Origin: Capitulum mitella
Taxonomy: Eukaryota; Arthropoda; Thecostraca; Pollicipedomorpha; Pollicipedidae
Direction of reading: 5' to 3'
Length of the DNA: 64,000 nt
NCBI GenBank assembly: GCA_030062745.1
Contig: CP099846.1
Coordinates: 27,611,201-27,675,200, forward strand
Part shown: one piece after another, positions 7,349 to 63,736 of the stretch
Layout of the letters: every line of letters begins with the position of its first letter
How positions within the stretch are numbered: position 1 is the stretch's first letter
The notes under the pieces: model-generated
The model's input: only the letters and a program-made list of their open reading frames with translations
The model's database searches: none
What the model was told of the DNA's origin: nothing
Program-made: the position numbers and the translations under genes

Positions 7349-8852
7349 GGGTTTTCGGGCAGAAATGCGTCGGACTAAAGTTCGTAGGACAATAGCTCGT
7401 CGGGCAATAGTTCGTAAGGGCAAAAGTTCATCGGACATAAGTTAATCTAGGGCAAAAATTCGTCTCGCGAAAGTTTGTATGGAGGAAGTTCGTCTAGGAC
7501 AAAAGTTCGCCTCGCTAAAGTTCGTATAGAACAAAAGTTCATCTAGACCAAAAGTTCGTTCAACAAAAGTTTGTCTAGGACAAGAATTCGTCCAGGACAA
7601 AAGTTCTTCTCGCAGAAATTTGTTTAGGGCAAAAGTTCGTCTGGGTCAAAAGTTCGTCCAAGAAAAGACTGTCGTCACATAGTTCTCACACGAAAGTCCA
7701 TGGCAGTATATGTATAGTCAAGAAAAATTGCCAACTGTCGGACGACAGCTCATGGAATCATGCTAGTGAATGAGATCCTGTCCATGGCCGGATCCGGAAC
7801 TGATCCCATTCAAACTCGTGCACATCCAGCTTTAGCCACTGTACACCGTACTGACCTACCCGAGTCACAGGCGAGGGGGTAACCCGACCAAGGTTCGTAA
7901 GTCAACGGTTCATATGGGGAAAGGTTCGTAGCTAAAGATTCGTATGCACGAGGTTCGTATGATAAAAAGCTAGTACGGTAAAAGGCTTTTATCGGAAAAG
8001 GTTCGTGATGCAGAAAGTGTGAACTGCAAAAGGCTCGTATGAAAAAGGTTCGTGGAAAAATGGTTCGTAAGGGAAAAGATTCGTGAGGAAAAATGTTCGT
8101 AATCAAGGGTTCGTAAACAAAGGCTCATATCGGAAAGGAGTCGCTCCGGGTTTGCGCAGAAAGCGCGGTACAGGACACTAGAGGCTGCAGGCCGATCAAG
8201 GGTGCAATCGGACTTGGTTCGGTCCAACGGAGAGGTTAGGTTAAGTTAACTTAGGTTAGGTAATGTTACTATTTTATGTCCGATCCTTCTCCGATACAAG
8301 TCTTAAGTGAACTATCTTTTGATTTCGAACCTTTTTTTCTTATGAAGTTTTCCTTTACGAACCTTTTTCTACGAATCTATTCCATACGAACCTTTTGCAG
8401 TACGATCCTTTCCCATTAGCGAGACGAACTTTTATTCTAGAGTAACTCTTGTTTTAGACAGATTTCTGTAATGATGGTGGTGATTCGGAATGACAGACTT
8501 TTGTCCTAGGCAAACTTTTGCCCAGTGCAAATTTTTGTCTTATACGAACTTTTGTCGTAGACGAACTTCTGCGAAAAGAACTTTTGTCACGGACGAACCT
8601 TTGTATTAGACGAACTTTTGCCCAAGACGAACTTCTGAAAGACGAACTTTCGTTCTCGACGAACTTTCACCCTCGACGAACTTTGGCCCTAGACGAACTT
8701 TTTCAAGCCGAACTTTTGCACGACGAACTTTTGTTCTAGACGAACTTTTGCCCTAAACGAACTTTTATACGACGAACTTCTGCGCGACGAACTTTTGTCC
8801 AACGAACTTTTGTCTGACGAACTTCTGCGATACGAACTTTTGCCCTAAAACC
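7349..8852. mobile_element. Foldback-like non-autonomous DNA transposon with inverted subrepeat arrays
   Basis: Termini are inverted relatives: GGGTTTTCGGGCA on the left and, read from the right end inward, GGTTTTAGGGCA. The left arm (about 7360-7670) holds roughly 19 degenerate ~17-bp units of the type AAAAGTTCGTCTAGGAC. A second array (about 7885-8125) uses AAAAGGTTCGTATG units. After a spacer the same units return in reverse complement, first CATACGAACCTTTT (about 8330-8410), then CTAGACGAACTTTTGTC (about 8410-8850). A 12-bp palindrome TAAGTTAACTTA at 8242-8253, flanked by GGTTAGG words, lies near the dyad centre. There is no coding capacity. Long inverted arms built from direct subrepeats are the hallmark of Foldback elements; the 8-bp target duplication would fit hAT- or P-like enzymes. 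Confidence 0.7.
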
Positions 8853-13228: not shown

Positions 13229-13232
13229 TTAA

Positions 13233-14487
13233 CCCTATTCTCGAAGTGCTACACGGTATGGCCGATTCCCGGCAGGGGGAGCGGCGGATTCGGCCCCTCC
13301 GAGATCTCGAGAACTACTCGTCCGATTTCATCGCAACAATCGGCAATCGATTTGCCATGACGTCAACTACATTTTTATGAAAAGAGCTTTTCAAAATTTT
13401 GAAAGGGCATGAAAAGGTTTGAAAAGGATACAGGATACCAAAATATCAGAATGGGGGTACTTTTGGATGTCTTATAACTCCGTTATTTATAGACCGATTT
13501 CGATGAAATTGGCATGAATCGAGAGATTATGGATGGGACTTTAACCATTGGTTTACCATTGGTTTATTGGTTTGGTTTACTTTTACCATTGGTTTACATT
13601 TCAAATTTTGAGGAAATTCATTGGCGTTCTTAGGGTTTCAAAAATACGAAGATGAGTTTTTCAAAACCTACATGAACAAAAAAGGTAAAAACACCTCTGT
13701 GCTAGTCATGTTATGCCAGAGAAGTACAAATCGTATTACACTGTTTGTATAATGTTAGTATAGGCGGTGCCAGAGGACATGGAAAAGGTGGAACTGTCAT
13801 GGTCATATGCTCTTAATGTCAGCTTGTGACCCTTGCCCTTAAATAACCTCCATTGACCTTGGAGTCACTTGGAATGACCTTGTGTACATTTAGTATTATC
13901 TGTAAACGTTTTAAATAATTTGAATTCACTCTATTTAAAAAATTCCTTATTACGGCTATTGTGATATAGGGTACGTTTATTGACATTTTAGGTTGTAGCT
14001 CGGTGACCCGACCTAATATCAAGTTGAAACCTGATACACAAGTAGAGGGCAGCATTCTACGTCATATATATTCCAGATTTGACATTTCAGAAAATAGCGC
14101 CGAAACTATTATTATAAAAGCAAATTTTGACTTTTGACCTTGGCTTGACCTTGTAAAGCGACCTCAGACAAACAAAATTGTATTTGCATGTTGCCCAGCT
14201 ATTTAGCTATACGTCCATATAACGTTGAAGGTTCTATCTTAAAAACGCTGTTTTGGGCAGTCATTTTCCTTTTACCCTCAACAGGGCCAGAAATGGCCTG
14301 AGGTGCCTCCCAAATACGATGCCTGGCTCCGCCGCTGAGCAAAAAAGAATTTTGAAATTTTGTGACATTACGTAGAAGGAATAGCTAGGACAAGTGAGTA
14401 AGTTTCGTAAAGCTACTTCAAAAAGCCTGGAATTGGCAAGCAAAAAACCCGAGGGGGGAAGAATTCAGCCCCCTGCTGGGAATAGGG
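13233..14487 (-). mobile_element. MITE family M1, copy A (TTAA target, reverse orientation)
   Basis: TTAA (13229-13232 and 14488-14491) flanks an element that begins CCCTATTCTCG and ends in the complement of CCCTATTCCC. It is homologous over its whole length to copies B-E, reversed relative to B, C and E. A TTAA duplication plus CCC-starting inverted termini is typical of piggyBac-superfamily elements. There is no transposase frame, so the element is non-autonomous. It lies 442 bp from copy B in the opposite orientation. Its receptor half-sites are partly decayed (TGACCTTGGAGTCA near 13855). Confidence 0.85.
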
Positions 14488-14491
14488 TTAA

Positions 14492-14925: not shown

Positions 14926-14929
14926 TTAA

Positions 14930-16133
14930 GCCTATTCCCGGCAGGGGGGCGGAATCCACCCCCCCTCGGGTTTTTTGCTTGCCAATTCCAGGCTTTTTAA
15001 CGCAGCTTCACAAAACTTGACCACTTTTCCTAGCTATTCCTTCTACGCGCCGTGACAAAATTTCGAAATTCTATTTTGCTCAGGGGCGGAGCCAGGCAAC
15101 GTTTTTGGGAGGCACCTCAGGTCATTTTTGGCCATGTTGAGGGTAAAAGGAAAATGTCTGCCAAAAACAAAGTTTCTAAGATAGAACTTAAAACATTACA
15201 CGAATGTATAGCTAAATAGTTGGGCAATGTGCATATGTAATTTTGTTTATCTGAGGTCACTTTACAAGGTCAGGTCTAGGTCAAAAGTCAAAATTTGTTT
15301 TTTCGCAATAATTTCGGTGCCGTTTTTTCAAATGCCAAACCCGGAATATATATGACGTAGAAAGATGTCCTCTACTTGTGTACCAAGTTTCAGCTTGATA
15401 TCAGGTCGGGTTACGGAGCTATGACCTAAAATGTCAGTGCACGTACCCTATATCGCAAAAGCCAAAACATGAATTTTTTGGAATAGAGTGAATTCAATCG
15501 ATTAAAAACGTTTACAGATAATACTGAATGCACACGACATCATTCCAGGTGACCCCAAGGTCACTGGAAGTCATTTAAGGTCAAAGGTCACAAGTTGATC
15601 TGAAGAACGTGTGACCATGACAGTTCCCCCTTTTTTATGTCCCTGGCACTGCCTATGCTAACATTATACAAATATTGTAATGCGATTTGTACTTCTTTCG
15701 CATAACATGACTAGCAGAAGCTAAAAAAGCGTTTTGGCCTCTTTTGTTCATTCCGTTATTGGAAAACTAATTCCCCTATTTTTGAAACCCTGTGAACTCC
15801 CATGAATTTTCTCAAAATTTCAAATTTGCATACCCATGGTAAAAGCCCTGTTCATAATCTCTCGATTCATGCCAGTTTCATCGAAATCGGTCCATAAACA
15901 ACGGAGTTATAACAAGTCGAAAAGTACCCCCCATTTTGACATTTTTCCCCCCTGTATCCACAAATTTCAAAATTTTGAAAATTTCTTTTTATAAAAATGT
16001 AGTTCACGTCACGGCAAATCGATTGCCGTTTGTTGCAAAGAAATCGGATAAGTAGTTCTCGAGATCTCAGGGGGGCCGAATCCGCCCCCCCTGCCGGGAA
16101 TCGGCCATACCGTCTAGCCCTCCGGGAATAGGG
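14930..16133 (+). mobile_element. MITE family M1, copy B (TTAA target)
   Basis: TTAA flanks both ends (14926-14929 and 16134-16137). The left terminus is GCCTATTCCCGGCAGG (first C changed to G) and the right terminus, read inward, is CCCTATTCCCGGAGGG. Next to each end lies the G/C-rich block that gives CCCGGCAGGGGGGC. The interior is AT-rich with TGACCT/AGGTCA clusters, including AGGTCA-A-AGGTCA ending at 15590. One AGGTCA in the array is changed to AAGTCA. No open frame of note. Confidence 0.88.
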
Positions 16134-16218
16134 TTAAAATGCTAGATATATGTTTTGAAACTGTGCACAAAAGAATCACGAATGACTGTATGCCCTAAGC
16201 AGTGACGATCACCTGCCT

Positions 16219-22516: not shown

Positions 22517-23325
22517 TCACATGTCATAGCCCAGCTCCCGGACCACATCGCTGCAACCGGCGTCCATCTCTGCCCGCAGTTTCGGTGGAACCTCCTTCCG
22601 CCAGTGCAGGGGGTCGAAGTCGGACGCGCGGAACGTGCTGAAGTAGGCGGTCTCGTTCGCCTTTCGACTGTGCCTCCTCGGCTGGGAGCCGGCCAGCGAC
22701 GTCCGCGGCGCCTCCGTCGCGTTCACGTGCTGGCGCAGATAGGCGGCGAGCTGCGGCGGCTCCGGCAGGCCGAGCTCGTCGAACAGGGCGGCCGCGGCGC
22801 GGCGCGGCGCGGCCGCCAGCGTCTCGTAGCGCACGCGTCGGTAGCGAGCGTCGCGCAGGTGGCGCACGGCGGTCAGGTCGGCACGCAGCGTGCGGCATGG
22901 AAACGTGCGGCTCGAGCGCAGACCCGCCCACAGCGCGGCCTTGCGCAACAGCGAGGCGATGGAAGCGCGCGGGTCGCGCACTAGGTGCAGCAGCTGCAGC
23001 CGGGCGGCCAGCGCCGGCTCGGCCAGCAGCGGCAGCACCTGCGCCAGCGCCGGCCGCACCAACTTGACGACGCGCACGGCCGACCGGCGGCAGCGTGTCG
23101 CCAGCTCCGAGACGTTGGGCGACGGCTTTGCCTGTTTGCTGATGAAGGCCCGGTACTGGTCCTCGCGCAGCACTGGCGACTGCTCCAGCTGGCACGTGAG
23201 CAGCTGCCGCAGCACGCCCACCACGTCCACGTCCCGCAGGCCGACCACCCGCGGGCCCTTTTTGACGTAATAGTAGAACGGTTCGAAGAAGTACGTCGTG
23301 GTCTCGGGCAGTGTGAGTATCTCGC
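22517..23325 (-). CDS. Carbohydrate 6-O-sulfotransferase, exon 3 (last coding exon, residues 90-358)
   Basis: This exon encodes the catalytic bulk of a Golgi carbohydrate sulfotransferase of the CHST1-7 (Gal/GalNAc/GlcNAc 6-O-sulfotransferase) family, which moves sulfate from PAPS to C6 of a sugar. Recognisable parts are FFEPF (about residues 102-106), VKLVR (176-180), the 3'-phosphate-binding motif LVRDPRAS (204-211; Arg206 and Ser211 are the expected ligands), RYETL (255-259) and a C-terminal LGYDM. N-glycosylation sequons are at about residues 160, 291 and 313. The exon starts after a good acceptor (TTTCGCGTTTACAG) with two bases that complete the Gly split by intron 2. Upstream in-frame ATGs at 23380 belong to the intron. 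The stop is TGA at 22517-22519. Codon use is strongly G/C-ending, unlike the surrounding DNA. The sugar substrate cannot be told from sequence. Confidence 0.93.
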
Positions 23326-26060
23326 CTGTAAACGCGAAACTCGTGGTTGGCTCCTGCAGGGTGTCCTCCATGCCTGACAAGCATTTGTAGCAGAGCTTTG
23401 CGCTTGGTGTAAAAGTTTGGTGCTAGCGGCCTTACTTGCGCCCATATTTATCTTTGTTCAATAATGTTCTGTTCAAGAATATCTTTGTAAATAGCCCGTC
23501 ACTCGCCAAAAAAGTCGCAAAAAAATCGCAGAGCTTCCAATAATCACACCTAGATTCTTGTCAACAAATACTTGCCACTAACAGCACTAGCACTTAACTA
23601 CGTCACATGCGTCACGGAGCCTGCACATGCTGAGCCTCAACAGTCACAGTCTGTTGAGGCCAGAAACAGTTCTTACGTGGTGCCGACAAACGGAGATGAT
23701 AAAATATGATGGAGCAATTATGCCATCACTTCAAATCAATCACGATACGCTTCCCAAACTAAGTGCTCTGGAAAGACAATGCTTTAACCAATGGATGGCC
23801 ATGAAGAAGAACGAAATCATCATAGCTGGCCGATATAAGGCTATGCAAAAGCTCAGAAGTTTTTGTTGGTGCATGCTATTTTTGTGTTTAAGAGAGGAGC
23901 TAGGCGAATAGACGAGATAGTTCACACAAGCTAACGATTGGCGCAAAAGTGACACTTTAATCGAAGCACCGTTCGGTAATAATTAGTTGTTGACTATTGA
24001 ATAACCAAACGCGGCCGCACCAGATGGGCCCGCGTACCAGCGACAGCCGATACCACGTCGCCACATCCCGTCCACCGCCCCTGCTCAGTCGCTTAATCTT
24101 CCAGATTTCCAGGAGGTACTTTTGAAATGTTCTGGCTACCATCGTCGTCGCCGCCTACCTCTGGTAGGTAGCGAAGTGTTCTGGCTACCTCATCGTCGAT
24201 TAGCCCGGTGTCATAAATAAGAGTTTGAGGTATTTTCCGACGACGAAATAGCGAGGAAGTCAAAATTTTGGACATGAGAAGTCTCTGCATACAGATGTCG
24301 TAAGGTGGAGTGAAATGGGCAATGCATAACTAAATAATGACTGACCGTTTTCAATGGGTGGCCTCAGAGATATTTTGGAGAATCAACCAGTTGGGTACGA
24401 AACAAGTGGGCGTTAAATTGCGACATGCTTTCTCTCAGCCAGGTACGGAGAATATTGCTTAATTTTGAGCCAAAGGAATAATAATCTGTCGGAATGATTA
24501 CCCCATGATGCTGACATACCGAACACGGAAATGGTCCTCCAGATATGCAAGTGCGGATGGAAAGCGGTAGCAAATTTCAAAGTCGCACTGCAGCCGGTAC
24601 GGCCGATCTTCGAACAGCACTAAGGCAGTTGCGAGAAGAGTGCGAAAATAGGCACCTCGAGGATTGAGGCCCATGTCAAATTCCTCTCTTGGGGAAGAAT
24701 GGATCTAATGTAAGCCGGGATGTGTGGCTGTTGCTCAGACAGGTTGTAAACAGTGATATTTTGCGTACATCACGTCAGGGAAGTGCAGCCCAAGTCAAGT
24801 CTTCGTTTTCTGGTCGGTGTGTTCTGCAGCGCCCTTGTCACAAGTTTCGCGTCCCTGTTTTGAAGTATTTTGAGACGAAGAGTATCGGTTAATGTCATGT
24901 TTTTATCGTAAACGGCGCCATATTATCCAAAATAAGTCTAATTTATACCTTGTATACTTGGTCGAGAATGGACCATGGAATGACTGGGGCTAAATTGGTA
25001 TATGGGACATGATGCTATGTTTTTTTTTATAAGGTCCTGTATGTGTTGACGGAAATGGAGACATTCTGAGACAGTACTTTCATGATGTTTGCGACTGTCT
25101 GAAAAAGGAAAACGCTGGCCGTCAAACACCAGGTAGGGAACATGTATCGTTCCGTTGGTAAACGTTTGCCGAACGTTTTAGAAGCATTAAGTGTGATCGA
25201 CCACTTTCAGCCATATCTGTGAAGTATCATTTCACGTTACTGATGCAAGACACCATATAGAACGGCTACATGTTTGATATCTTTCAGACGCTAATTGGCT
25301 TTCAGACATCTTTGTCTGATTCCCTTCACTAAAGATTCTGGGGACTAAATGTTAAACATTTACTAGATATTTCCTAGACCTTAGAACCTGGTCAGATTTA
25401 AGAGTCTTGGGAAAAATATTTAGAACATGAGAAATCTAGAAAACAATAAAAAATGGCTGTTTTCCGATACCAAAACTTTACAGCCATGAAGTGAACTTCG
25501 TTACCGCAATGTGAGTTATGCGCGGCAAATTTAGAGACGCTTAAAATATCTGAAACTTCCAGTCCTTTAACGTCTTGTTGACACTCCGAACTAAAATTTT
25601 TGTCTGTCTATAGCATGAGCAGAATTCGCTCATTTGGAAGCAGTGGCCATACGTAAGAGTCCTCCGCTAAAAATGATAATTTTTGGTTGTTGTGGCAATA
25701 ATGCACGATCGCCACCATCAGTAACACCGGATGCTAACACTCACACAGACTTGAGGTGTGGCTCCGAAGGAAAGCGTGAGAGTATACGAAGATCCTGAAT
25801 TTCAGGAAGGAAAGGGCGTGTTAAGGGCGATCAGCCCTCCCGGACGGTCGTTGAGTTAGCTTAGTCATTTCATGGGGAAGCCTGGAAACAGCAATGCCAC
25901 GTCTCCAAACACATCCGTGGGCACTGCAAAGCGAAAAGACGCATGAAAACATTCTTTAGAGGTCACTTTTAAAGATTCTGAGGATCCAGCTCAACGGGAT
26001 TAAGTTTTGAGTTCCGAAGCCTATCTTTGATATTCCCGCATTATTTTGCAACAAGGCTTG

Positions 26061-27834: not shown

Positions 27835-27838
27835 TTAA

Positions 27839-29033
27839 CCCTATTCCCGGCAGCGGGGGGGGGCTGAATTCGCCCCCCTCGGGTTTTTGCTTGCCAATTC
27901 CATGATTTTTGACAGAGCTCCACGAAACTTAGTGGATTTTCCTAGTTATTCTTTCTACGTGCTGCGACAAAATTTCGAAATTCTATTTGCTCAGGGGCGG
28001 AGCCAGGCAACTTTTTTGGGAGGCACCTCAGACCATTTTTCGCCCTGTTGAAGGTAAAAGGAAGATGACTGTCAAAAATAGCGTTTTTTTTAAGAAAATT
28101 TAAAATTTTCTATGGATGTATAGCAAAATAGTTGGGCAACGTGCGGATACAGTTTTATTTATTTGAGGTCACTTTACAAGGTCAGGTCAAGGTCAAAAGT
28201 CAAAATTTTTATAGTAATAATTTAAGCGCTATTTTTTGAAATGCCAAACCCGGAATATTTACGACGTAAAAGCGTGCCCTCTACTTGTGTATCAAGTTCC
28301 ACCTTGATATCAGGTCGGGTCACGGAGCTATGACCTAAAACGTCAGTGCGCGCACCCTATATCACAAAAGTCGTAAAATGGAACTTTTGAAACAGAGTGA
28401 CTTTGAATGACTGGAGACGTTTCCAGGTAATATTAAATGCACACGAGATCTTTTCAAGTGATTCCAAGGTCACTGGAGGTCATTTGAGGTCAAAGGTCAC
28501 AAGCTGGTCTGAAGAACATGTGATCATGACAGTTCCCCTTTTTCATGTCCCTGGCGACGCCTGTGCTAACATTAGACGAACATTGTAATACGATTCGTAC
28601 TGCTTTAGCATAACATGACTAGCAGAAGCCAAAAAAGCGCTTTTACTTTTTATGAACATTCAGTTGTTGAAAAACTAATCTTCCCGTTTTCAAAACCCTG
28701 TGAACGTCTAATATTTTTTTTTTAATTTCAGACGTGTGTACCGATGGCAAAAGTCGCATCCATAATCTCTCGATTCATGGCAATTTCATCAAAATTGGTC
28801 CGTAAACGACGGAGTCCAAACGTACCCCCCATTTGGATATTTTTGCACTCCTGTAAGCACCCCTTTCAAAATTTTGAAACGTTCTTTTTTAAGTGTAGGT
28901 TACGTCATGGCAAATCGATTGCCGTTTGTTGCGATGAAATCGGATGAGCAGTTCTCGAGATCTCAGGGGAGCCGAATCCCCCCCCCCCACTGCCGAGAAT
29001 CGGTCCATACCGTGTAGCCCTCCGGAAATAGGG
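27839..29033 (+). mobile_element. MITE family M1, copy C (TTAA target), within sulfotransferase intron 2
   Basis: TTAA at 27835-27838 and 29034-29037 flanks termini CCCTATTCCCGGCAG and, inward from the right, CCCTATTTCCGGAGGG. The element is 1195 bp, non-coding, and inserted antisense to the host gene. It carries the best preserved nuclear-receptor half-site arrays of the family (28164-28195 and 28467-28499). Confidence 0.9.
28467..28499 (+). promoter_or_regulatory. Nuclear-receptor array DR4-DR4-DR1 inside MITE copy C
   Basis: Four perfect AGGTCA half-sites in 33 bases start at 28467, 28477, 28487 and 28494, with spacers CTGG, TTTG and A. Upstream, at 28164-28195, are four more, including TCAAGGTCA (28187-28195), the extended half-site bound by FTZ-F1/SF-1 and ERR monomers. 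DR1 is the classic RXR/USP-HNF4 spacing, and DR4 the LXR/TR-type spacing that EcR/USP also tolerates. Function in vivo is not shown by sequence. Confidence 0.6.
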
Positions 29034-29037
29034 TTAA

Positions 29038-35927: not shown

Positions 35928-36589
35928 AACGGGAATAACCGCGGGTATCTTGATCTACGCGGCATCTTGACCGCGGCTCCCTCTGTCTAGACCTCCTCCA
36001 GGTTTACTGGGTTCCATTCTATGAGGCAGACTCCGCGACTGAGAAGTGGAACGTGGGGTGCAACGTGCGTGGGGTAAAACTGCGGTTTCGTCCTACCCGT
36101 GGCTACAAGATGAGGAGATGCAGTCTGCAATGGGAGCCGGGACCCAGGCACATGCCATGGAGGACTGGAACCCATCTGAGGACAATCAAGTAGACATAGA
36201 GTACCTTCTCCGCCGGAGCGCCGTCAAGACGTCCTGAACCGTGCCTGCTCCGCGTACATCCGGACATCTTTCAAGAACTCCAGGACAGCAACATGGAGTG
36301 ACATTCGGCAAAACCTGACCTCGTCTAAGAGCCCCGAGCCGAAGACGACCTGCCCAGCCGACCACGATCCTCAGTTGCCGGCGGGCTGAACCGGCTTTGC
36401 GTCCGCCAGCCCCCATGTGGCGGGAGCGCCGGCTGCATCCCACACCGGGGAGACTCTCCGGCCTCGCCCGCCGCGCGTGCGCAGCGGCGCGTTCGCCCTG
36501 CGTTCGGCCACGTTCCCGGAACTGTCGACGCTCTGCGGCGGATGGGCTCAGCCCATGCTAGCGGCCCAGGATCACCAGCTGCGTGCTAA

Positions 36590-37804
36590 CCCTATTCCCG
36601 GAGGGCTACGCGGTATGGTCGATTCCCGGCAGGGGGACGGATTCGGTCCCCTCCCCGCTCCGGATCTCGAGAACTACACATCCGATTTCATCGCAACAAA
36701 CGGCAGTCGATTTGCCATGATGTAAACTACACTTTTGTAAAAAGAAGTTTTCGAAATTTTGAAAGGGGCAAAAATATCAATATGGAGGGCACTTTTGGAC
36801 TTCTTATAACTCCGTTATGGACCGATTTCGATGAAATTGGCATGAATCGAGAGATCATGGGTGGGGCTTGTACTACTTGTACACACATTTGAAATTTTGA
36901 GAAAATCATAGGCGTTCACAGGGTTTCAAAAATACGAGGATTAGCTTTTCAAAAACTACATGAACAAAAAAAGGTAAAAGCTCTTTTTTGACTTCTGCTA
37001 GTCATGTTGTGCTAAAGAAATAAAAATCGTATTACAATATTCGTACAACGTTAGCATATGGGTGCCAGGGGATGAAAAAGGAGGAACTGTCATGGTCACA
37101 TGCTCATCACGTCAACTTGCGACTTTTGACTTTAAATGACCTCCAGTGACCTTGAGGTTACTTGGAATAATCTCGTTTGTGTTTAGTATTATCTGTAAAC
37201 GCTTTCAATCATTTGGATTCATTCTATTTCGAAAATTCCATGTTACGGCTATTATGATATAGGATATGCGCACCGACGTTTTAGGTCATAGCTCCGTGAT
37301 CCGACGTGATATCAAGTTGAAACTCGATACACAAGTAGAAGGCACCCTGCCTCGCCATATCGTTCCGAGTTTTGCATTTCAAAAACTAGCACCGAAATTA
37401 CTACTTTAAAACAAAAATTTTACTTTTGACCTAGACTTGACCTTATAAAGTGATCTCAGACGAACAAAATTGTATTTGCACGTTGTCAACAAAATCGTTG
37501 CCCAGCTATTTAACTATACATCTCCATCAAGTTTTAAGTTCTATCTTAAAAACGCTATTTTTGGCAGTCATTTTTCTTTTACCCTCAACAGGGTCAAAAA
37601 TGGCCTGAGGTGTCTACTAAAAACGTTCTCTGGCTCCGCCCCTGAGCAAAAAAGAATTTCGAAATTTTGTCACAGTGCATAGAAAGAATAGCTAGTAAAA
37701 GACACCAAGTTTCATGAAGCTGTGTCAAAAATCCTGGAATTAACAAGCAAAGTAGCTGAGGGGAGGGACGAATTCAGCTCCCCCCCCTCCTGCCGGGAAC
37801 AGGG
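36590..37804 (-). mobile_element. MITE family M1, copy D (CTAA target), within sulfotransferase intron 1
   Basis: Same family as copies A-C and E, in the orientation of A. CTAA occurs at both edges (36586-36589 and 37805-37808) instead of TTAA. Termini are CCCTATTCCCGGAGGG and, from the right, CCCTGTTCCCGGCAGG. Inside are degenerate TGACCT clusters (TGACCTCCAGTGACCT at about 37138-37153). Non-coding, 1215 bp. Confidence 0.85.
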
Positions 37805-37837
37805 CTAAGAGCGACTTTTCCAGTTGTGGAACGCCGC

Positions 37838-40965: not shown

Positions 40966-41657
40966 AATATTATGAGGAGAAAGAAAACTTAGAAACACAG
41001 ACATTAACGCAAACGAAGTATTTGTTGAAGTAATACTTGGGGGTATGGTAGATTATAGGCATGGTAATGTCCATTCGTGCTAGGCTGCGGTTCCAGTGTG
41101 ATGGAGGTAATCTTTCGAAATTAAGCTTCCGGCGCGCCAAAACATATAATTTTTGCTATTCACCGAAATGATAAGTCGACCGGCATTGGAACGCAGGGCA
41201 GTTGTAAAGAGAAGAAATCATTCCTAATAGCTTCAAGGGTCTTTCCACAATAATATGGGATAATGAGATAAATCAAATGTATGGTTATGTTACGTTAAGT
41301 TGCGATTTAAAAAGACGACGGAAGCTAGCTCTCGAGGAATAAAAATTTCCGCGCGCCTTCGGCGCGGGAAATTCACTAATTTTGTGGTTGGCCAAATATT
41401 AAAACAGCTTTTTCTGATTAGCAAACGCCGTAATTCCTGTTTACCTACTCATCTCGAGCCACAGAAGGGCCCACATGAAGTCTCACATAAGGAACCCCAT
41501 CGGGGCCGTGCACACCATCGTCACCTTAGGAAAATCTTGCGTGCGTGACTGTTCGTATAAAATGCCTGCCAATATTGTAGGCAAATTTTAACCTTTTTTG
41601 ATTCACGACAGACGTGGAAAACGACATCGAAACAGGTGCGGTGTAACTTGCTGTTAA

Positions 41658-42782
41658 CCCTCACCGGAGCCCGGAAATCCCCTCTCCCCTACTGTTTTCC
41701 GAGCGTGGCGAAAAAACGGCGGAGCGCAGCGCCACGAAATTTTCAGTACCTTTCTCTTATCTGTTTCTCAGTCTGCGTGAAAATTTCAAGTTGCAAAGAA
41801 CTCAAACACTGACCGAGGTCTGGTCAAAGAGATCAGCCTCCCAAAAAAATTGTGGCCCTAATAATTTTTTTTAAGGCGGAACAGATTTGTATAAAACTTG
41901 CAAGAGTAACAGAATCCAATAAATGCAACAACTTGTATACTTCGGATTTCATGGAAAATCGAAGGCCAGCGACTTCAGGTCAGGTCGCTTTTAGGACCTT
42001 CTTGATATCTGGCTTAAATTTCAGAGAATATTTGCTGGGCTTTTATGCTCAGATATTGTCAAAAACATGGCCAGTAACATATACTCCCATCATATTACCA
42101 GAATACGCGTGGCTTTGGCTCAGGTCATGACCCCTGATAGGAGTATCTGTTGCCCGCAACATACAATTTCCATGAACCCGAAACTGCCTGCCTAAAAACA
42201 ATAATTTATTGTTTTCTAGAGTAGGAATAAACGATGAAATCAAATTCAGCGTAAAATAGACCTATCTAACGTCGCTGGAGGTCATCAAAGGTCAGTGACC
42301 TCCGATGACCTTATTTGACCCAGGTCAACCTTCAGGGCAGTGACAAATGCTCATCAAGTGTTTTACTATGCTACGGGCAATATCTGCCATCCAATGTGTC
42401 ACCAAAACCACCGGGTAAGTGGAACCGCGATTCATCATAATAGCGCCACAGACATGCAGGTAATTAGGTCGTGGATTGACGTGACCTCATTAATTAATTG
42501 ATTAATTAATAATCATCTGAGTATGCCACCAAAATGAAAATCACAACGTCGATTTCCTTTTTTATCTCATCTTCACTCTAGCTCAGTCCGGCCTACCATG
42601 ATACCTGATGACCTCAATATTGACCCAGACTTAAAAAACTTGTGCTTATTCGACTCGATTTGATGAGTTCTCTTTGCTGGCATTTCATTTTTATCTGTGT
42701 GGCGCTCAGAACCTGAGACCCTGAGGGTGGATATCTGCCGCCGACCGGTGTAGAGGCATTGTCAAGTCCGGCTGGGCGCGGG
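41658..42782. mobile_element. TTAA-flanked non-autonomous element, family M2
   Basis: TTAA lies at 41654-41657 and 42783-42786. The left terminus is CCCTCACCGGAGCCCGGA; the right, read inward, is CCCGCGCCCAGCCGGA, a partial inverted repeat. The 1125-bp interior is non-coding, AT-rich and unlike family M1, but is again rich in TGACCT/AGGTCA words. A further end of this type (TTAA then CCCGCGCCCAAC) is at 60296. A piggyBac-like mobiliser is inferred from the target and the CCC ends. Confidence 0.6.
42279..42328. promoter_or_regulatory. Symmetrical nuclear-receptor site DR4-IR1-DR4 with a following inverted pair
   Basis: AGGTCA (42279-42284), 4 bases, AGGTCA (42289-42294), one G, TGACCT (42296-42301), 4 bases, TGACCT (42306-42311): four perfect half-sites mirrored about position 42295. 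The central IR1 satisfies the ecdysone-response consensus RGKTCANTGAMCY. TTGACC-CA-GGTCAA follows at 42315-42328. Receptor binding is known for such motifs in general; activity here is inference. Confidence 0.6.
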
Positions 42783-43755
42783 TTAACCGGCCCAAACACA
42801 ACAAAGCGAAAATCATTAGAACGTCATTATAAGGTCAGTTAACTACCGAGGTGAAATGCCTATAACTGCACTACGTTCAAAATCTCCATGCCGTTCTGTT
42901 ACGAAATTAATTGGGTAGGAGGTCCAGAAGGACTTCAGAAAGAGAAACGTTGAAAACATTAAAAATCCGTCACCTCCTACTTCGACTGATCGCATTTCCC
43001 TTCACACTCGAGCACTCGTCGCAAAACAATATCCATGCAAAAGTTGGGCTTCGAAATTAGCGTTTAAGATATGTGTACTGGTACGTGAAAAAATGTAGCT
43101 GACTTTTTGATGCAATTCACGGTCACCCGACGTCTGCCAAACGTTGTCAAGACCCGAGGGAGATATTGCAGGATAAAGAGTGCATATCTTTAGTAACATG
43201 AATAGTACCATTTGATAAGGTTATTTTTTGGAGTGATGCCTGAGAAACATGTTGATAAGCCCATGGTCTAATCCTTGAACAAAAGAGTCCCGGAGAATTA
43301 TAGATACAAATGGGATCCGATTGTGCTGTGTTGTGGGACAAATGTTGTGCAAAATTTCCAGTATATAATAAAACTTGAAAAAATGCATTTTAATATTGTC
43401 CAAAAATTCAGAGCGCCTTCGGAACGCAAAACTTCCAGTACTCGATAATGCATTTGAAAATACGATAACGAAATGTGATAGGAATATATATAAATAAATA
43501 TGTATTATAAAGAGCGAAATATGGCAGTACTTAAAACGTTGGCACGCCTCTGGCGCGCCAAGCATTTATGTACGTGCAAATGTATTGACCTGACGTGTCT
43601 TCGGGGCGCGCGAATAAGACATTTATGCCGATTATATGCAAACGCACTACCTTTTGTGCCTGCCACAGAACCAATGCGATATGTCACCCTCCTGAAATCG
43701 GAATCGGAGGCCCCGTGAAGACGGGGCCCCTCCCGATGTCAACCCCCACTTAAGG

Positions 43756-52899: not shown

Positions 52900-53031
52900 A
52901 CACCTGCTCTACGAAGATGGCCAGCTGTTTCAGTTCATCGTTTGGGTTCCGTATTCTACGTATATAACGCAAGGATCCTAAGTGTTAGCCAGAGGAAGTG
53001 ATTGACGGAGAGGTTTTCGCTGTTTCTTTAA

Positions 53032-54242
53032 CCCTATTCCCGGCAGGGGGGGGGGCGGAATCCGCCCCCCCTCGGGTTTTTTGCTTGCCAATTCCAGGCT
53101 TTTTAACGCAACTTTACGAAACTTGGTCACTTTTCCTAGCTATTCTTTCTACGTGCTGTGACAAAATTTCCAAAAAAATTTTTTTTGCTCAGGGGCGGAG
53201 CCAGGCAATGTTTTTGGGAGGCACCTCATGCCATTTTTGGCCATGTTGAGGGTAAAAGGAAAATGTCTGCCAAAAACAGAGTTTTTAAGATAGAACTTCA
53301 AACTTTATATGGATGTATAGCTAAATATTTAGGCAATGTGAAGATTTAATTTTGTTTTTCTGAGGTCATTTTACAAGGTCAGGTCAAGGTCAAAAGTCAA
53401 AATTTGTTTTTTTCGCTATAATTTCGGTGCCATTTTTTCAAATGCAAAACCCGGAATACGTATGACGTAGAAGGATGCCCTCTACTTGTGTGCCACGTTT
53501 CAGCTTGATATCGGATTGGGTCATGGAGATATGACCTAAAATGTCAGTACGCGTACCCTATATCGCAATGGCCAAAAAATGAAATTTTTGAAATAGAGTG
53601 AATTCAAATGATTGAAAACGTTTACAAATAATATTAAATGCACACGACATCATTCCAAGTGACCCCAAGGTCACTGGAGGTCATTTAAGGTCAAAGGTCA
53701 CAAGTTGATCTGAGAAACGTGTGACCGTGACAGTTCCCCCTTTTTCATATCCCTGGCACCGCCTATGCTAACATTGTACAAACATTGTAATGCGATTTGT
53801 ACTTCTTTAGTATAACATGACTAGCAGAAGCCAAAAAAGGGCGTTTGCCTCTTGTTCATTCAGTTGTTAGAAAACTAATCCTCGTATTTTTAAAACCCTG
53901 TGAACGCCCATGAATTTTCTCAAAACTTCAGATTTGCGAACCCATGGTAAAAGCCCTATCCATAATCTCTCGATTGATGCCAGTTTCATCGAAATCGGTC
54001 CATAAACAACGGAGTTATAAGAAGTCCAAAAGTACCCCCCATTTCGACATTTTTGCCCCCCTGTATCCACAAATTTCAAAATTTTGAAAATTTCTTTTTA
54101 TAAAAGTGTAGTTCACGTCACGGCAAATCGATTGCCGTTTGTTGCGATGAAATCGGACAAGTAGTTCTCGAGATCTCAGGGGGGGGCGAATCCGCCCCCC
54201 TGCCGGGAATCGACCATACTGTTTAGCCCTCCGGGAATAGGG
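53032..54242 (+). mobile_element. MITE family M1, copy E (TTAA target)
   Basis: TTAA at 53028-53031 and 54243-54246. The left terminus is CCCTATTCCCGGCAGG and the right, inward, CCCTATTCCCGGAGGG. It is very close to copy B over its length, suggesting recent common origin. It carries the intact AGGTCA array (DR4-DR4-DR1) at 53668-53700 and TCAAGGTCA near 53383. Non-coding, 1211 bp. Confidence 0.92.
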
Positions 54243-54841
54243 TTAATGCCGGCACCGAGCCGCCCGCTTCGGCCTGGCAGCAGGCACGCAATAGGCGCTG
54301 GTCGGATGACAGGTCGTGCACAACCTCGGCAGCCGGCCGACAGACGTGGGATGCGTTCAAAGCTGGACACGCGTGGGCGATGGACATCTTCGCAGAGTTT
54401 CTGACCTAGTGGGCCTTTGAAATACTGGCCCATTGGCACCGTGGCCTTCGTCTCAGTGGGTGAACAGGTGCCTGGGTGCAGGGGAAGAGAGGAGTCATGA
54501 ATGTTGGAACTCCCATATTATCCCACGGTAATATGGGACATGAGTACTGACTAACTCAGCGACATGAGTAAAACGTCACGAAATGAATCCCCCATTCAGA
54601 TCTTGCAAAGAAACATTCGAAAAAAGTCAAGGGTAACACTTAGCTCCGTAAAATATTCCTTCGCACTTCTTGCCTTAGTCTCTCTTTCATTTCATTTTCA
54701 TAGATTTTTTTTTACAAATTCTCATAGATTTATTTTAAAAAAGAATCCAGAGGTTCACTCTGCTGAAGGCTAACTTGCGAGGAAACCCATTCTCGTGCAG
54801 CTGACACACCCGTCAGTGAAGACCGGTCCGAATCTTCCGCT

Positions 54842-61584: not shown

Positions 61585-63736
61585 ATGACCGCCGTGATAC
61601 CCTTCTGGGAGCGCGCGCATATCCCGATGCAGAAAAGGCAGCGCGCGCAGGAACAGATCCTTCGCCTCCACGAGAAGTGGAAGGCGCTCAAAAAAAAAAA
61701 AAGAAGCGGCGGACCAAGACGCAGGAGACGAAGGAGAAGGAGTTTGTCGAGTCGGCGACCGGTCTCTTCGACATCGCGCATCAGGACGCTCTGGCGACGA
61801 TGACGATCAACGAGGACAAAGAGTTCCTCCAGGCCCAGCGCGAGAAGGGACGGCTGAATGGTGCATGGCGGCGAAGGAAATGACCCTGGCCGTCCTCGAG
61901 AACCGGAAGCGGAAGAAGGAGGAGGCGACACAGCGATATCGAGAGACGGCTGAGATCGAGCGGCAGACTCTCGACGAGACTGCGCAGTTGGCCTCTTCCA
62001 GCTCCTCTAGTGCCGTCAGCAGCCCCACTCGCTCCGTCCACCAAGAGCGCGACGGCGACGACTCGCCCGGTCCATCGACCCCGGATCCCTCGACTTCTAC
62101 AGCAGCGTGTTTGCCGCCCAAGCGTCGCCGCGCAGCAACGAAGCTTATCAGCACAGAGCTAACCGCCGCGATGGAGCGGACAAAGATGTCCAACCGCGAT
62201 GGTGTCTACGTCCTGACGGCGGCGGCTCGGAGCCTGGGACACAAACCTGAAGAGCTGGTCGTCAACCGTGAGTCATTTCGCAAGTCCCGGATGCAGTTCC
62301 GGAAGGCCAAGGCTACCGAGATCAAGGCCACCTTTGCACCGACCGTCCCCCTCAGGGTCCACTGGGATGGGAAAATCGTTCTAGGCGTCGACGGCGGACC
62401 AGCCGTCGACTGACTTCCGGTCCTCGTCTCCGGTGACGGTGTGTCGAAGCTCCTGGCCGTGCCGAAGCTTCCCAACGGCACCGGAAAAGCCGCCGCTGAC
62501 GCTGTCCTCGCGGCGCTCGATGACTGGGAGGTGAACGACCGAGTGAGGGCGTTCAGTTTCGACACCACTGCCTCTAACACCGGCCTCAGCGCCGGGGCCT
62601 GCACGATCATCGAGCAGCGGCTCGACCAGGACGTGCTCCACCTGGCCTGCCGCCACCATGTTTATGAACTTGAACTGTTTATGTTTATGAACTGGAGATG
62701 CCACCATGTTTATGAACTGGATAAGGCGTTCACCGTCTGTCTCGGCCCGTCCAGCGACCCGGACGTTCCTTTATTCAAACGCTCCCAGACAAATTGGGCA
62801 TCGTTAGATAGGACGGCGCCGGAGCCCTTCGACGACTGCGATATGCCGCCACACCTGCACGATAGCCGCGACGACCTCCTTGTGCAGGTCGACCGCCTCC
62901 TCGACGACCAGCACCCACGCGATGACTACCGCGAGCTGCTGGAGCTGGCCACGATTGTCCTCGGCGGGGTTCCGAAGCGAGGTGTGAGGATCGCCCGCCC
63001 CGGTGCACTGCACCGGGCGCGCTGGATGGCCAAGGCCATTTACTCGGTGAAAATATATCTCTTCCGCTCACAGTTCCGGCTCACTGCGTCCGAGAAGAGC
63101 GGCATCCAGCGAGCCGTGACGTTTGTGGTTTCCACGCACGTCACGGCCTGGTTCAAGGCGCCGATTCCGGCGTCTGCCCCGGCTCAGGACCTCGGCTTCC
63201 TCAAGTCGCTCCTCAAGTACGAGGACAAGCCGGTGTCCAAGACGACGGCCGCCGTCTTCGGCCGTCACCTCTGGTATCTGAGCGAGCGACTGGTCGCGCT
63301 CGCCTTCTTCGACGAGGAAGTGACGCTCGCGACCAAGCGCGAGATGGTCATAGCGCTACGCGAGGAGGAGGGACCCGAGGATCCCCCTCGCCGAGCCCAA
63401 GTCGAGCTCACGGCGGCGTCGGTCTCCAACAAGACGGTGGCAAACTTCGTCACGACTGGCTCCGCCAGCTTCTTCACCCTTCTCGGCCTGGAGACGGACT
63501 TCCTCGACAAGGATCCGGCCTGCTGGGAGGAGGAACCCTCCTACAACGCCGCCTCTCGCCGCGTCAACTCACTCCGCGTCGTCAACGACTTCGCGGAGCG
63601 GGACGTCGCGCTGATGCAGGAGTTCAACTTGGCCCTCACCAAGGACGAGGGCCAGAAGCAGTTCCTGCTACAGGTCGTCGAGGAGCACCGGGTCAGATTT
63701 CCGAACGCCCGCAAGTCCAGTGTGACTGCAAACTAG
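61585..63736 (+). pseudogene. Decayed DDE transposase gene (hAT-like RNase-H fold, tentative)
   Basis: The protein is spread over three frames. Frame 1 from ATG 61585 gives MTAVIPFWERAHIP...LHEKWKALKKKK; after an A-run near 61691-61702 it continues in frame 0 (LFDIAHQDAL, FLQAQREKGR); after a one-base loss near 61863 it continues in frame 2 to the stop at 63736. A TGA at 62411-62413 interrupts frame 2 between VHWDGK and LPVLVSG. The core FDTTASNTG...LACRHH matches a transposase family repeated in many invertebrate genomes and resembles the D-x-x-x-x-N...C-x-x-H block of hAT enzymes. A small in-frame duplication (HHVYEL repeated, 62657-62720) follows. The C-terminal half (63000-63736) is intact and G/C-ending. 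The copy is inactive; the superfamily is inferred. Confidence 0.75.

What the first reader, a model, noticed from the sequence alone, without database searches (positions are those of the whole stretch)
42279..42311. Mirror-symmetric DR4-IR1-DR4 receptor site in a second TTAA element family
Four perfect half-sites are arranged as AGGTCA-4-AGGTCA-1-TGACCT-4-TGACCT, an almost designed-looking palindrome centred on a consensus ecdysone-response IR1. That two unrelated TTAA-flanked families (M1 and M2) both carry dense ordered half-sites suggests selection, perhaps for hormone-timed transcription or mobilisation, rather than chance.
Basis: partly seen in the sequence, partly recalled or inferred. 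Interest (0 to 1): 0.82.

Follow-up and report, generated by a model that had tools for sequence, protein, structure and literature searches.

The report
Receptor-site arrays in small transposons
A 33-base palindrome of four hormone-receptor binding motifs is the surviving core of a longer ancestral array carried by families of small, apparently non-coding jumping genes in what looks like a crustacean genome; the array geometry is far too regular for chance, although its binding and effect are untested.

Summary
Observation confirmed: AGGTCA-4-AGGTCA-1-TGACCT-4-TGACCT lies exactly at 42279-42311, inside a TTAA-flanked transposon, M2 (41654-42786). The window's genome holds 35 perfect copies; the backwards control finds 0. 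M2 is a real family (40 scored of 384 candidates). The block is NOT specially conserved: among 29 other M2 copies 690 of 1197 windows are better kept, and none of the 29 is perfect. The ancestral consensus, however, carries 22 perfect half-sites (0.49 expected, shuffle maximum 4), and the block is the middle of an ancestral seven-unit mirror array. Three other repeat families share the core geometry with unrelated spacers. Spacing is strict: 50 of 51 pattern places keep one register. M1 and M2 share one end but not recognisably their interiors. Half-site clusters recur about every 165 bp (post hoc). Best reading: arrays for host nuclear receptors (EcR/RXR favoured), kept by selection on active progenitors and decaying nearly neutrally in copies. 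Hormone-timed expression or mobilisation is untested.

The parts
41654..42786 (+). M2 copy: TTAA-flanked transposon without a recognised gene (TTAACCCTCACC...GCGCGGGTTAA), 1133 bp including both TTAA
   Evidence: second copy L031 with the same ends; left arm 42 matches from 40 scored candidates of 384, right arm 41 matches from 40 scored of 281, the window's own included in both
42279..42311 (.). reported block: AGGTCA-4-AGGTCA-1-TGACCT-4-TGACCT (DR4-IR1-DR4)
   Evidence: exact match; 35 exact places genome-wide, control 0
42269..42331 (.). full ancestral central array of seven half-sites; in this copy the outer positions 42269 and 42326 have decayed, and 42316 reads TGACCC as in the consensus
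   Evidence: consensus of M2 copies
41799..41835 (+). half-site cluster 1 (five perfect half-sites in the consensus; decayed here)
41963..41987 (.). half-site cluster 2 (IR1 plus overlapping direct repeats in the consensus; one perfect site, 41977, here)
42110..42127 (.). half-site cluster 3 (ER6 in the consensus; 42122 perfect here)
42477..42487 (-). half-site cluster 5 (overlapping direct repeat in the consensus; 42482 perfect here)
42589..42614 (-). half-site cluster 6 (DR4-DR4 in the consensus; 42609 perfect here)
27835..29037 (+). M1 copy, TTAA transposon sharing the terminal ~140 bp with M2; half-sites at +331 to +360, +496 and +632 to +665 (other copies at 13229-14491, 14926-16137, 36587-37808, 53028-54246)

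Best explanation
The block is the intact core of an ancestral seven-half-site array near the middle of a non-autonomous TTAA transposon (M2, piggyBac-type by its ends). Shown: the element, its family, the ancestral array, the strict geometry, and its recurrence in other repeat families with unrelated spacers. Inferred: the half-sites are binding sites for host nuclear receptors, most likely the ecdysone receptor with RXR (IR1, DR4 and ER6 are all present). Inferred: they were kept by selection while the progenitors were active, for example because receptor binding opened or transcribed the element's chromatin in the tissue or stage where a transposase acts. After insertion single copies decay nearly neutrally, and this copy kept its inner four half-sites by luck.
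For: M2 consensus holds 22 perfect half-sites against 0.49 expected, M1 consensus 9 against 0.49 (maximum 4 in 1000 dinucleotide shuffles for each). Density per kb: 30 M2 copies 8.0, five M1 copies 5.7, flanks outside the named families 1.05, six autonomous-looking piggyBac elements 0.36. Within the M2 consensus array, collected without regard to the block, half-sites are 95% identical to each other and spacers 30%; over four family consensuses 94% and 31% (22 half-sites, 14 spacers), three of these families having been collected through the perfect block. With the central gap left free from 0 to 15 there are 51 places: 35 with gap 1, 15 with gap 11, one with gap 9 (4 of the 15 overlap gap-1 places). 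With the two outer gaps free from 0 to 12, 35 of 48 places are (4,4). The genome has 49 zf-C4 exon matches, two pairs of which match an EcR domain at 74-93%. Drosophila EcR-USP drives 20E-induced reporters in yeast through ER6, IR0, IR4, DR1, DR4 and DR5 (PMC5494300, passages).
Against: Half-sites are not significantly better conserved than other positions among M2 copies, so no host-level use of individual copies is visible. No binding, expression or chromatin data exist here. Any nuclear receptor that reads AGGTCA could be the ligand, and IR1, the centre of the block, is not in the list of response elements that I saw in PMC5494300 (its use by EcR is recalled). The one family A copy met independently of the block (L051) has a decayed array.
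Confidence: 0.58

Rival explanations
1. The half-sites are binding sites of the transposase or an accessory protein of these elements, needed for transposition, and only resemble nuclear-receptor sites.
For: They occur in several TTAA families with related ends and are constrained at the level of the active element rather than the single copy. Multiple internal transposase sites are known in other superfamilies (recalled).
Against: The clusters are spread through the element with the largest at the centre in M2, not only below the ends. Six autonomous-looking piggyBac elements with paired TTAA ends hold 0 to 2 half-sites each, 0.36 per kb. Family B shows no TTAA at the ends of its aligned part yet has the same array.
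Confidence: 0.15
2. A host chromatin or architectural zinc-finger protein, not a hormone receptor, binds the arrays; the roughly 165-bp spacing of clusters phases nucleosomes and protects or silences the elements.
For: Cluster centres fit a period of 164 bp (2 of 1000 random placements reach the power; nine of eleven sequences had the three clusters needed) or 166 bp for consensuses alone (1 of 1000; four of five used).
Against: The period was looked for after seeing the data. M1, M2 and A share parts, family B has long inverted arms so some of its clusters are mirrored, A, B and C were collected through the block, and the right half of the family C consensus is poorly aligned. AGGTCA with DR4/IR1/ER6 spacing is the textbook nuclear-receptor grammar (recalled; EcR-USP use of DR4 and ER6).
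Confidence: 0.15
3. No function: the arrays grew by local duplication of a 10-bp unit and are copied passively.
For: The units have a fixed 10-bp register, as tandem duplication would give, and copies decay nearly neutrally.
Against: Successive units of the M2 array keep the six half-site bases but share almost nothing in the four spacer bases (95% against 30%). The array is mirrored about an IR1. The same geometry recurs in families with unrelated spacers.
Confidence: 0.12

Closest known systems
Primate Alu repeats carrying DR2 (and DR4) hormone response elements (PMC1785376, abstract and section list)
   Same: A high-copy non-coding transposon spreads nuclear-receptor direct repeats through a genome.
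   Different: Alu DR2s arose largely by CpG deamination of a non-consensus motif in AluS; here dense DR4/IR1 arrays are already in the progenitor consensus, several families share them, and the host has EcR-like genes.
Mouse SINE B1 bound by the pioneer receptor NR5A2 (PMC11102866, passages)
   Same: Repeated elements carry an orphan-receptor motif bound in the early embryo, where chromatin opens.
   Different: NR5A2 reads a single TCAAGG(C/T)CA monomer site; here sites are mirrored multi-unit arrays with fixed DR4 and IR1 spacing.
piggyBac-type non-autonomous TTAA transposons (family recalled)
   Same: TTAA at both ends, inverted ends beginning CCC, no recognised gene, piggyBac transposases in the same genome (118 matches, fragments counted apart).
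   Different: Ends differ from those of the piggyBac elements examined beyond TTAACCC, and I know of no piggyBac-type element described with receptor-site arrays (recalled).

Membership tests
piggyBac-type non-autonomous transposon | TTAA target duplication with inverted ends beginning CCC | tested here: met
   41654-42786 and L031 end in TTAACC...GGGTTAA. In the 30 extracted stretches TTAACC is seen near the left end in 10 and GGGTTAA near the right end in 12; in the others it was not seen.
piggyBac-type non-autonomous transposon | no transposase of its own, autonomous relative in the genome | tested here: inconclusive
   118 DDE_Tnp_1_7 matches in the genome. In 6 of 8 fetched, paired TTAA ends were found, but their inner sequence (CCCATTAACGCCCAG in three, like CCC(A/T)TTAGTGCCCA in three) is not that of M1 or M2; 110 matches were not examined.
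piggyBac-type non-autonomous transposon | mobilised by a piggyBac transposase | not testable with these tools
   needs a transposition assay
ecdysone response element (EcR/RXR) | AGGTCA-like half-sites as IR1 or DR4 | tested here: met
   exact block; DR4, IR1, overlapping direct repeats and ER6 are the commonest spacings in 63 loci held, 34 of them collected through the block
ecdysone response element (EcR/RXR) | receptor present in the organism | tested here: met
   two EcR-like DNA-binding-domain pairs, C11:5120833-5121731 (93% and 78%) and C6:31132490-31133492 (86% and 74%, one stop inside the second match), against a recalled Drosophila EcR domain; matches that cover nearly the full zinc-finger domain in one exon are 46-58%. 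RXR/USP was not searched by itself.
ecdysone response element (EcR/RXR) | binds EcR/RXR and responds to ecdysteroid | not testable with these tools
   needs gel shift and reporter assay
host-adopted regulatory element | block conserved above the element background in individual copies | tested here: not met
   33-column window mean 0.834, exceeded by 690 of 1197 windows (29 copies); half-site against other columns 0.8605 and 0.8475, 111 of 1046 circular shifts as high. Within the block half-sites are a little better kept than spacers (0.842 and 0.813).

The most novel reading that the evidence does not exclude
Several transposon families of one arthropod-like genome, at least one apparently without TTAA ends, carry the same mirror-symmetric nuclear-receptor landing array in their interior, near the centre in M2 and the short family A element (M1 has a related direct-repeat cluster there), with further half-site clusters about one nucleosome length apart. 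Host receptor binding (EcR/RXR or an orphan receptor) is used to open the element's chromatin at a set developmental time, so that transposition is hormone-gated; in passing this may have seeded the genome with thousands of receptor sites that titrate or rewire moulting-hormone signalling.
Probability: 0.2. Interest if true: 0.88.

Novelty: new variant of a known kind. Interest (0 to 1): 0.64.

Why it matters
Whether transposons exploit, or supply, hormone response elements is, as far as I know, argued mostly from mammalian SINEs. Here the receptor sites are in the ancestral sequence of the elements, in strict geometry and in several families; for M2, A and C 40 candidates each were scored as matches out of 384, 382 and 322 first-look candidates. 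That makes two questions testable in an arthropod: does a steroid receptor gate transposition, and have transposons distributed moulting-hormone sites across the genome. The consensus array is also a ready-made probe for identifying which receptor reads it.

Tried and rejected
Rejected: chance; M1 and M2 as wholly unrelated (but their interiors, positions 300-1100, show no similarity once half-sites are masked, 213 of 300 shuffles do as well); special conservation of the block in copies; halves of M2, M1 or the short family A element as inverted repeats of each other (no score above the best of 50 shuffles; apart from the last 20-40 bp of M1 and M2; family B does have long inverted arms). Coding capacity around families A, B and C: 8 of the longer open frames from the fetched loci gave no Pfam match beyond one weak DUF hit, E 0.033; their other frames were not scanned. 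A comparison of the window's M2 with single M1 copies was weak (for four of five M1 copies the score equals or exceeds the best of 60 shuffles, for the fifth it does not); the M2 profile finds the ends of four of the five M1 copies at E 0.001 to 7. In the masked consensus comparison the reverse orientation also exceeds its shuffles (43 against 36), as inverted ends would give. Rfam finds nothing in the window. Paper searches for AGGTCA or hormone response elements together with transposable elements or MITEs showed no earlier description in the listings that I saw: 0 papers; 4; 0; 1; 8 of 37 listed. One search (EcR, DR4, IR1, crustacean, RXR) gave 2 papers that I did not use. A search for barnacle and MITE gave 11 papers, none used beyond the two barnacle genome papers.

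An independent conservation test in family C was planned (40 matches scored of 322 candidates) but the letters could not be fetched; the same test in family A (40 of 382) was not pursued for the same reason. Two of the 29 M2 copies (L054, L060) have nearly the same block, lie about 65 kb apart and may be one duplicated insertion; they were counted as two.

Full report
What is there. The 33-bp block at 42279-42311 is exactly as described. It lies in a TTAA-flanked element, here called M2, at 41654-42786. A second copy, L031, shows the same boundaries, TTAACC...GGGTTAA, with similarity falling away outside. Searching the window's own genome (G000, 477 Mb, 16 contigs) with the left arm alone, block excluded, gave 42 matches from 40 scored candidates of 384, at 74-79% identity apart from the window's own; the right arm gave 41 matches from 40 scored of 281. 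So M2 is a real, old, multi-copy family.

The block among copies. I aligned the window copy with 29 copies cut out. Conservation was measured on the 29, the window copy left out, in columns with at least 18 letters. None of the 29 has four perfect half-sites; the product of half-site column frequencies predicts 1.5%. (Two further M2 copies with perfect blocks, L012 and L031, are known only because the block pattern found them.) The block's 33-column mean identity is 0.834, and 690 of 1197 windows are better. Half-site columns average 0.8605, other non-CpG columns 0.8475, and columns close to half-sites 0.833; 111 of 1046 circular shifts of the half-site mask do as well; a half-site is kept exactly in 42% of copies and an average other hexamer in 40%. 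Within the seven-unit array, half-site columns average 0.857 and spacers 0.800. So there is at most a slight excess, not significant here: copies decay nearly neutrally after insertion.

The ancestral sequence is the remarkable part. The M2 consensus (1169 bp) holds 22 perfect AGGTCA half-sites; 1000 dinucleotide shuffles average 0.49 with a maximum of 4. AGGTCA is its commonest hexamer, twice as common as the next (22 and 11). Six clusters lie at consensus positions 152-184, 315-334, 462-474, 622-679, 830-835 and 968-988. The central cluster reads AGGTCA-4-AGGTCA-4-AGGTCA-1-TGACCT-4-TGACCT-4-TGACCC-4-TGACCT: three units facing four, in one 10-bp register about an IR1. The reported block is its inner four units. 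Within this array half-sites are 95% identical to each other and spacers 30%.

Genome-wide geometry. The exact block occurs at 35 places, the backwards control at 0. Leaving the central gap free (0-15) gives 51 places: 35 with gap 1, 15 with gap 11 (one unit further in the same register), 1 with gap 9, none with another gap (50 of the 51 are listed, the last is known; 4 of the 15 overlap a gap-1 place because the array there has five perfect units). Leaving both outer gaps free (0-12) gives 48 places: 35 are (4,4); nine have 4 on one side; four are (1,10) or (10,1).

Several families. The 35 loci cluster into family A (13), C (7), B (6), M2 (3) and six singletons. Family A has a short free-standing form, L014, a 693-bp TTAA element with the block within 2 bp of its centre. 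Family C has TTAA at its left end in some copies; its right end was not found. Family B shows no TTAA at the ends of its aligned part and has long inverted arms; the block is near the middle of the arms in L025, about 170 bp off in L017 and over 300 bp off the middle of the outer arms in L019. All four consensuses share the DR4-IR1-DR4 core plus a further unit on the left (perfect in M2 and C, altered to AGGCCA or AGGCTA in A and B), while spacers are unrelated: half-sites are 94% identical, spacers 31%. A, B and C were collected through the perfect block, so this comparison is biased for them; it is not for M2 or M1. The one family A copy met by accident and not through the block (L051) has a decayed array.

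M1 and M2. Masked of half-sites, the two consensuses align over the first 142 bp with score 56.5 against a maximum of 34 in 300 dinucleotide shuffles. With the G/C-rich first 46 bases removed the match over positions 46-160 still exceeds all 300 shuffles (33.5 against 28). The interiors, positions 300-1100, show nothing: 213 of 300 shuffles do as well (first seen). A profile of M2 finds the same end in the M1 consensus at E 4.6e-6 and the centre at 4.8e-5, the centre being mostly half-sites; it also finds family A's right end in reverse and its centre. Single M1 copies are matched weakly or not at all. M1's half-sites lie at 332-356, 501 and 637-664, close to M2's second, third and fourth clusters; M1's central cluster is DR4-DR4-DR1, without the mirror. 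So M1, M2 and A look like branches of one TTAA superfamily by their ends, whose interiors have diverged beyond recognition, or been replaced, while ordered half-sites remain.

Density controls. Half-sites per kb: 30 M2 copies 8.0, five M1 copies 5.7, flanks of 29 M2 loci outside the named families 1.05 (67 in 63,602 bases), window outside M1 and M2 0.93 (53), six piggyBac elements 0.36 (6 in 16,786 bases). The genome holds 118 piggyBac transposase matches, fragments counted apart; 8 were fetched and 6 had paired TTAA ends, none with the inner sequence of M1 or M2.

Cluster spacing. From five consensuses and six singletons, nine had the three clusters needed; the best period is 164 bp, and 2 of 1000 random placements reach its power. 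For consensuses alone (four of five used) it is 166 bp, 1 of 1000. This is close to a nucleosome repeat. It was looked for after the fact, the families are not independent, the right part of the family C consensus is poorly aligned, and B's inverted arms mirror some clusters, so I hold it as a lead.

Who could bind. The 49 zf-C4 exon matches fall into about 31 places when I group neighbours by eye, so about thirty nuclear-receptor genes; two pairs match a recalled EcR domain at 74-93%. In 63 loci held, 34 of them collected through the block, the commonest spacings are DR4 (114), IR1 (42), overlapping direct repeats (41), ER6 (16) and DR14 (14). Drosophila EcR-USP drives 20-hydroxyecdysone-induced reporters in yeast through ER6, IR0, IR4, DR1, DR4 and DR5 (PMC5494300, passages). 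That fits EcR/RXR but does not single it out.

How it most likely works. Shown: element, family, ancestral array, geometry, recurrence, near-neutral decay of copies. Inferred: selection on active progenitors for receptor binding; identity of the receptor; benefit through chromatin opening or transcription at the time and place of transposition. The closest precedents are Alu DR2/DR4 elements (PMC1785376, abstract) and SINE B1 with NR5A2 (PMC11102866, passages).

The organism. Unnamed. Two EcR-like genes, 477 Mb and 16 contigs would fit a barnacle: Capitulum mitella assemblies are given as 463 Mb on 16 chromosomes (PMC8416341, passages) and 512 Mb, with 16 chromosomes in a figure legend and an ancient genome duplication in the title (PMC11331182, passages). 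This is a guess.

Noticed in passing
13229-14491, 14926-16137, 27835-29037, 36587-37808, 53028-54246: M1 is very common: five copies in 64 kb, and about 3.1 kb of M1 in 103 kb of M2 loci, so it may make up several per cent of the genome.
   Followed up: partly
L072 184-566 and 3229-3710: A piggyBac element seems to have inserted into an M1 copy at a TTAA: the two M1 pieces end at profile positions 827 and 828 on either side of it.
   Followed up: no
G000 C4:18409978, C6:15890102, C12:13319132, C15:8734195: Four sites with a different geometry, AGGTCA-1-AGGTCA-1-TGACCT-10-TGACCT or its mirror, suggest one more family with its own array.
   Followed up: no
L017, L019, L025: Family B elements have long inverted arms (about 400-700 bp, 68-74% identical) with the receptor block between or beside them.
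   Followed up: partly
1987-2829: Tandem array of 29 copies of a 29-bp unit, 97% matches.
   Followed up: no
7357-7673 and 8497-8847: Two degenerate arrays with the same motif (GGACAAAAGTTCGT) in opposite orientation about 800 bp apart.
   Followed up: no
22517-23422 (-): 301-aa open frame resembling a sulfotransferase (Sulfotransfer_3, E 2.5e-5, just under the curated cut-off).
   Followed up: no
61598-63736 (+): Two neighbouring long open frames (271 and 440 aa) without a Pfam match at E 0.1; they may be one uncharacterised protein.
   Followed up: no
G000 C11:5120833-5121731 and C6:31132490-31133492: Two EcR-like DNA-binding-domain genes, which would be consistent with a genome duplication.
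   Followed up: no
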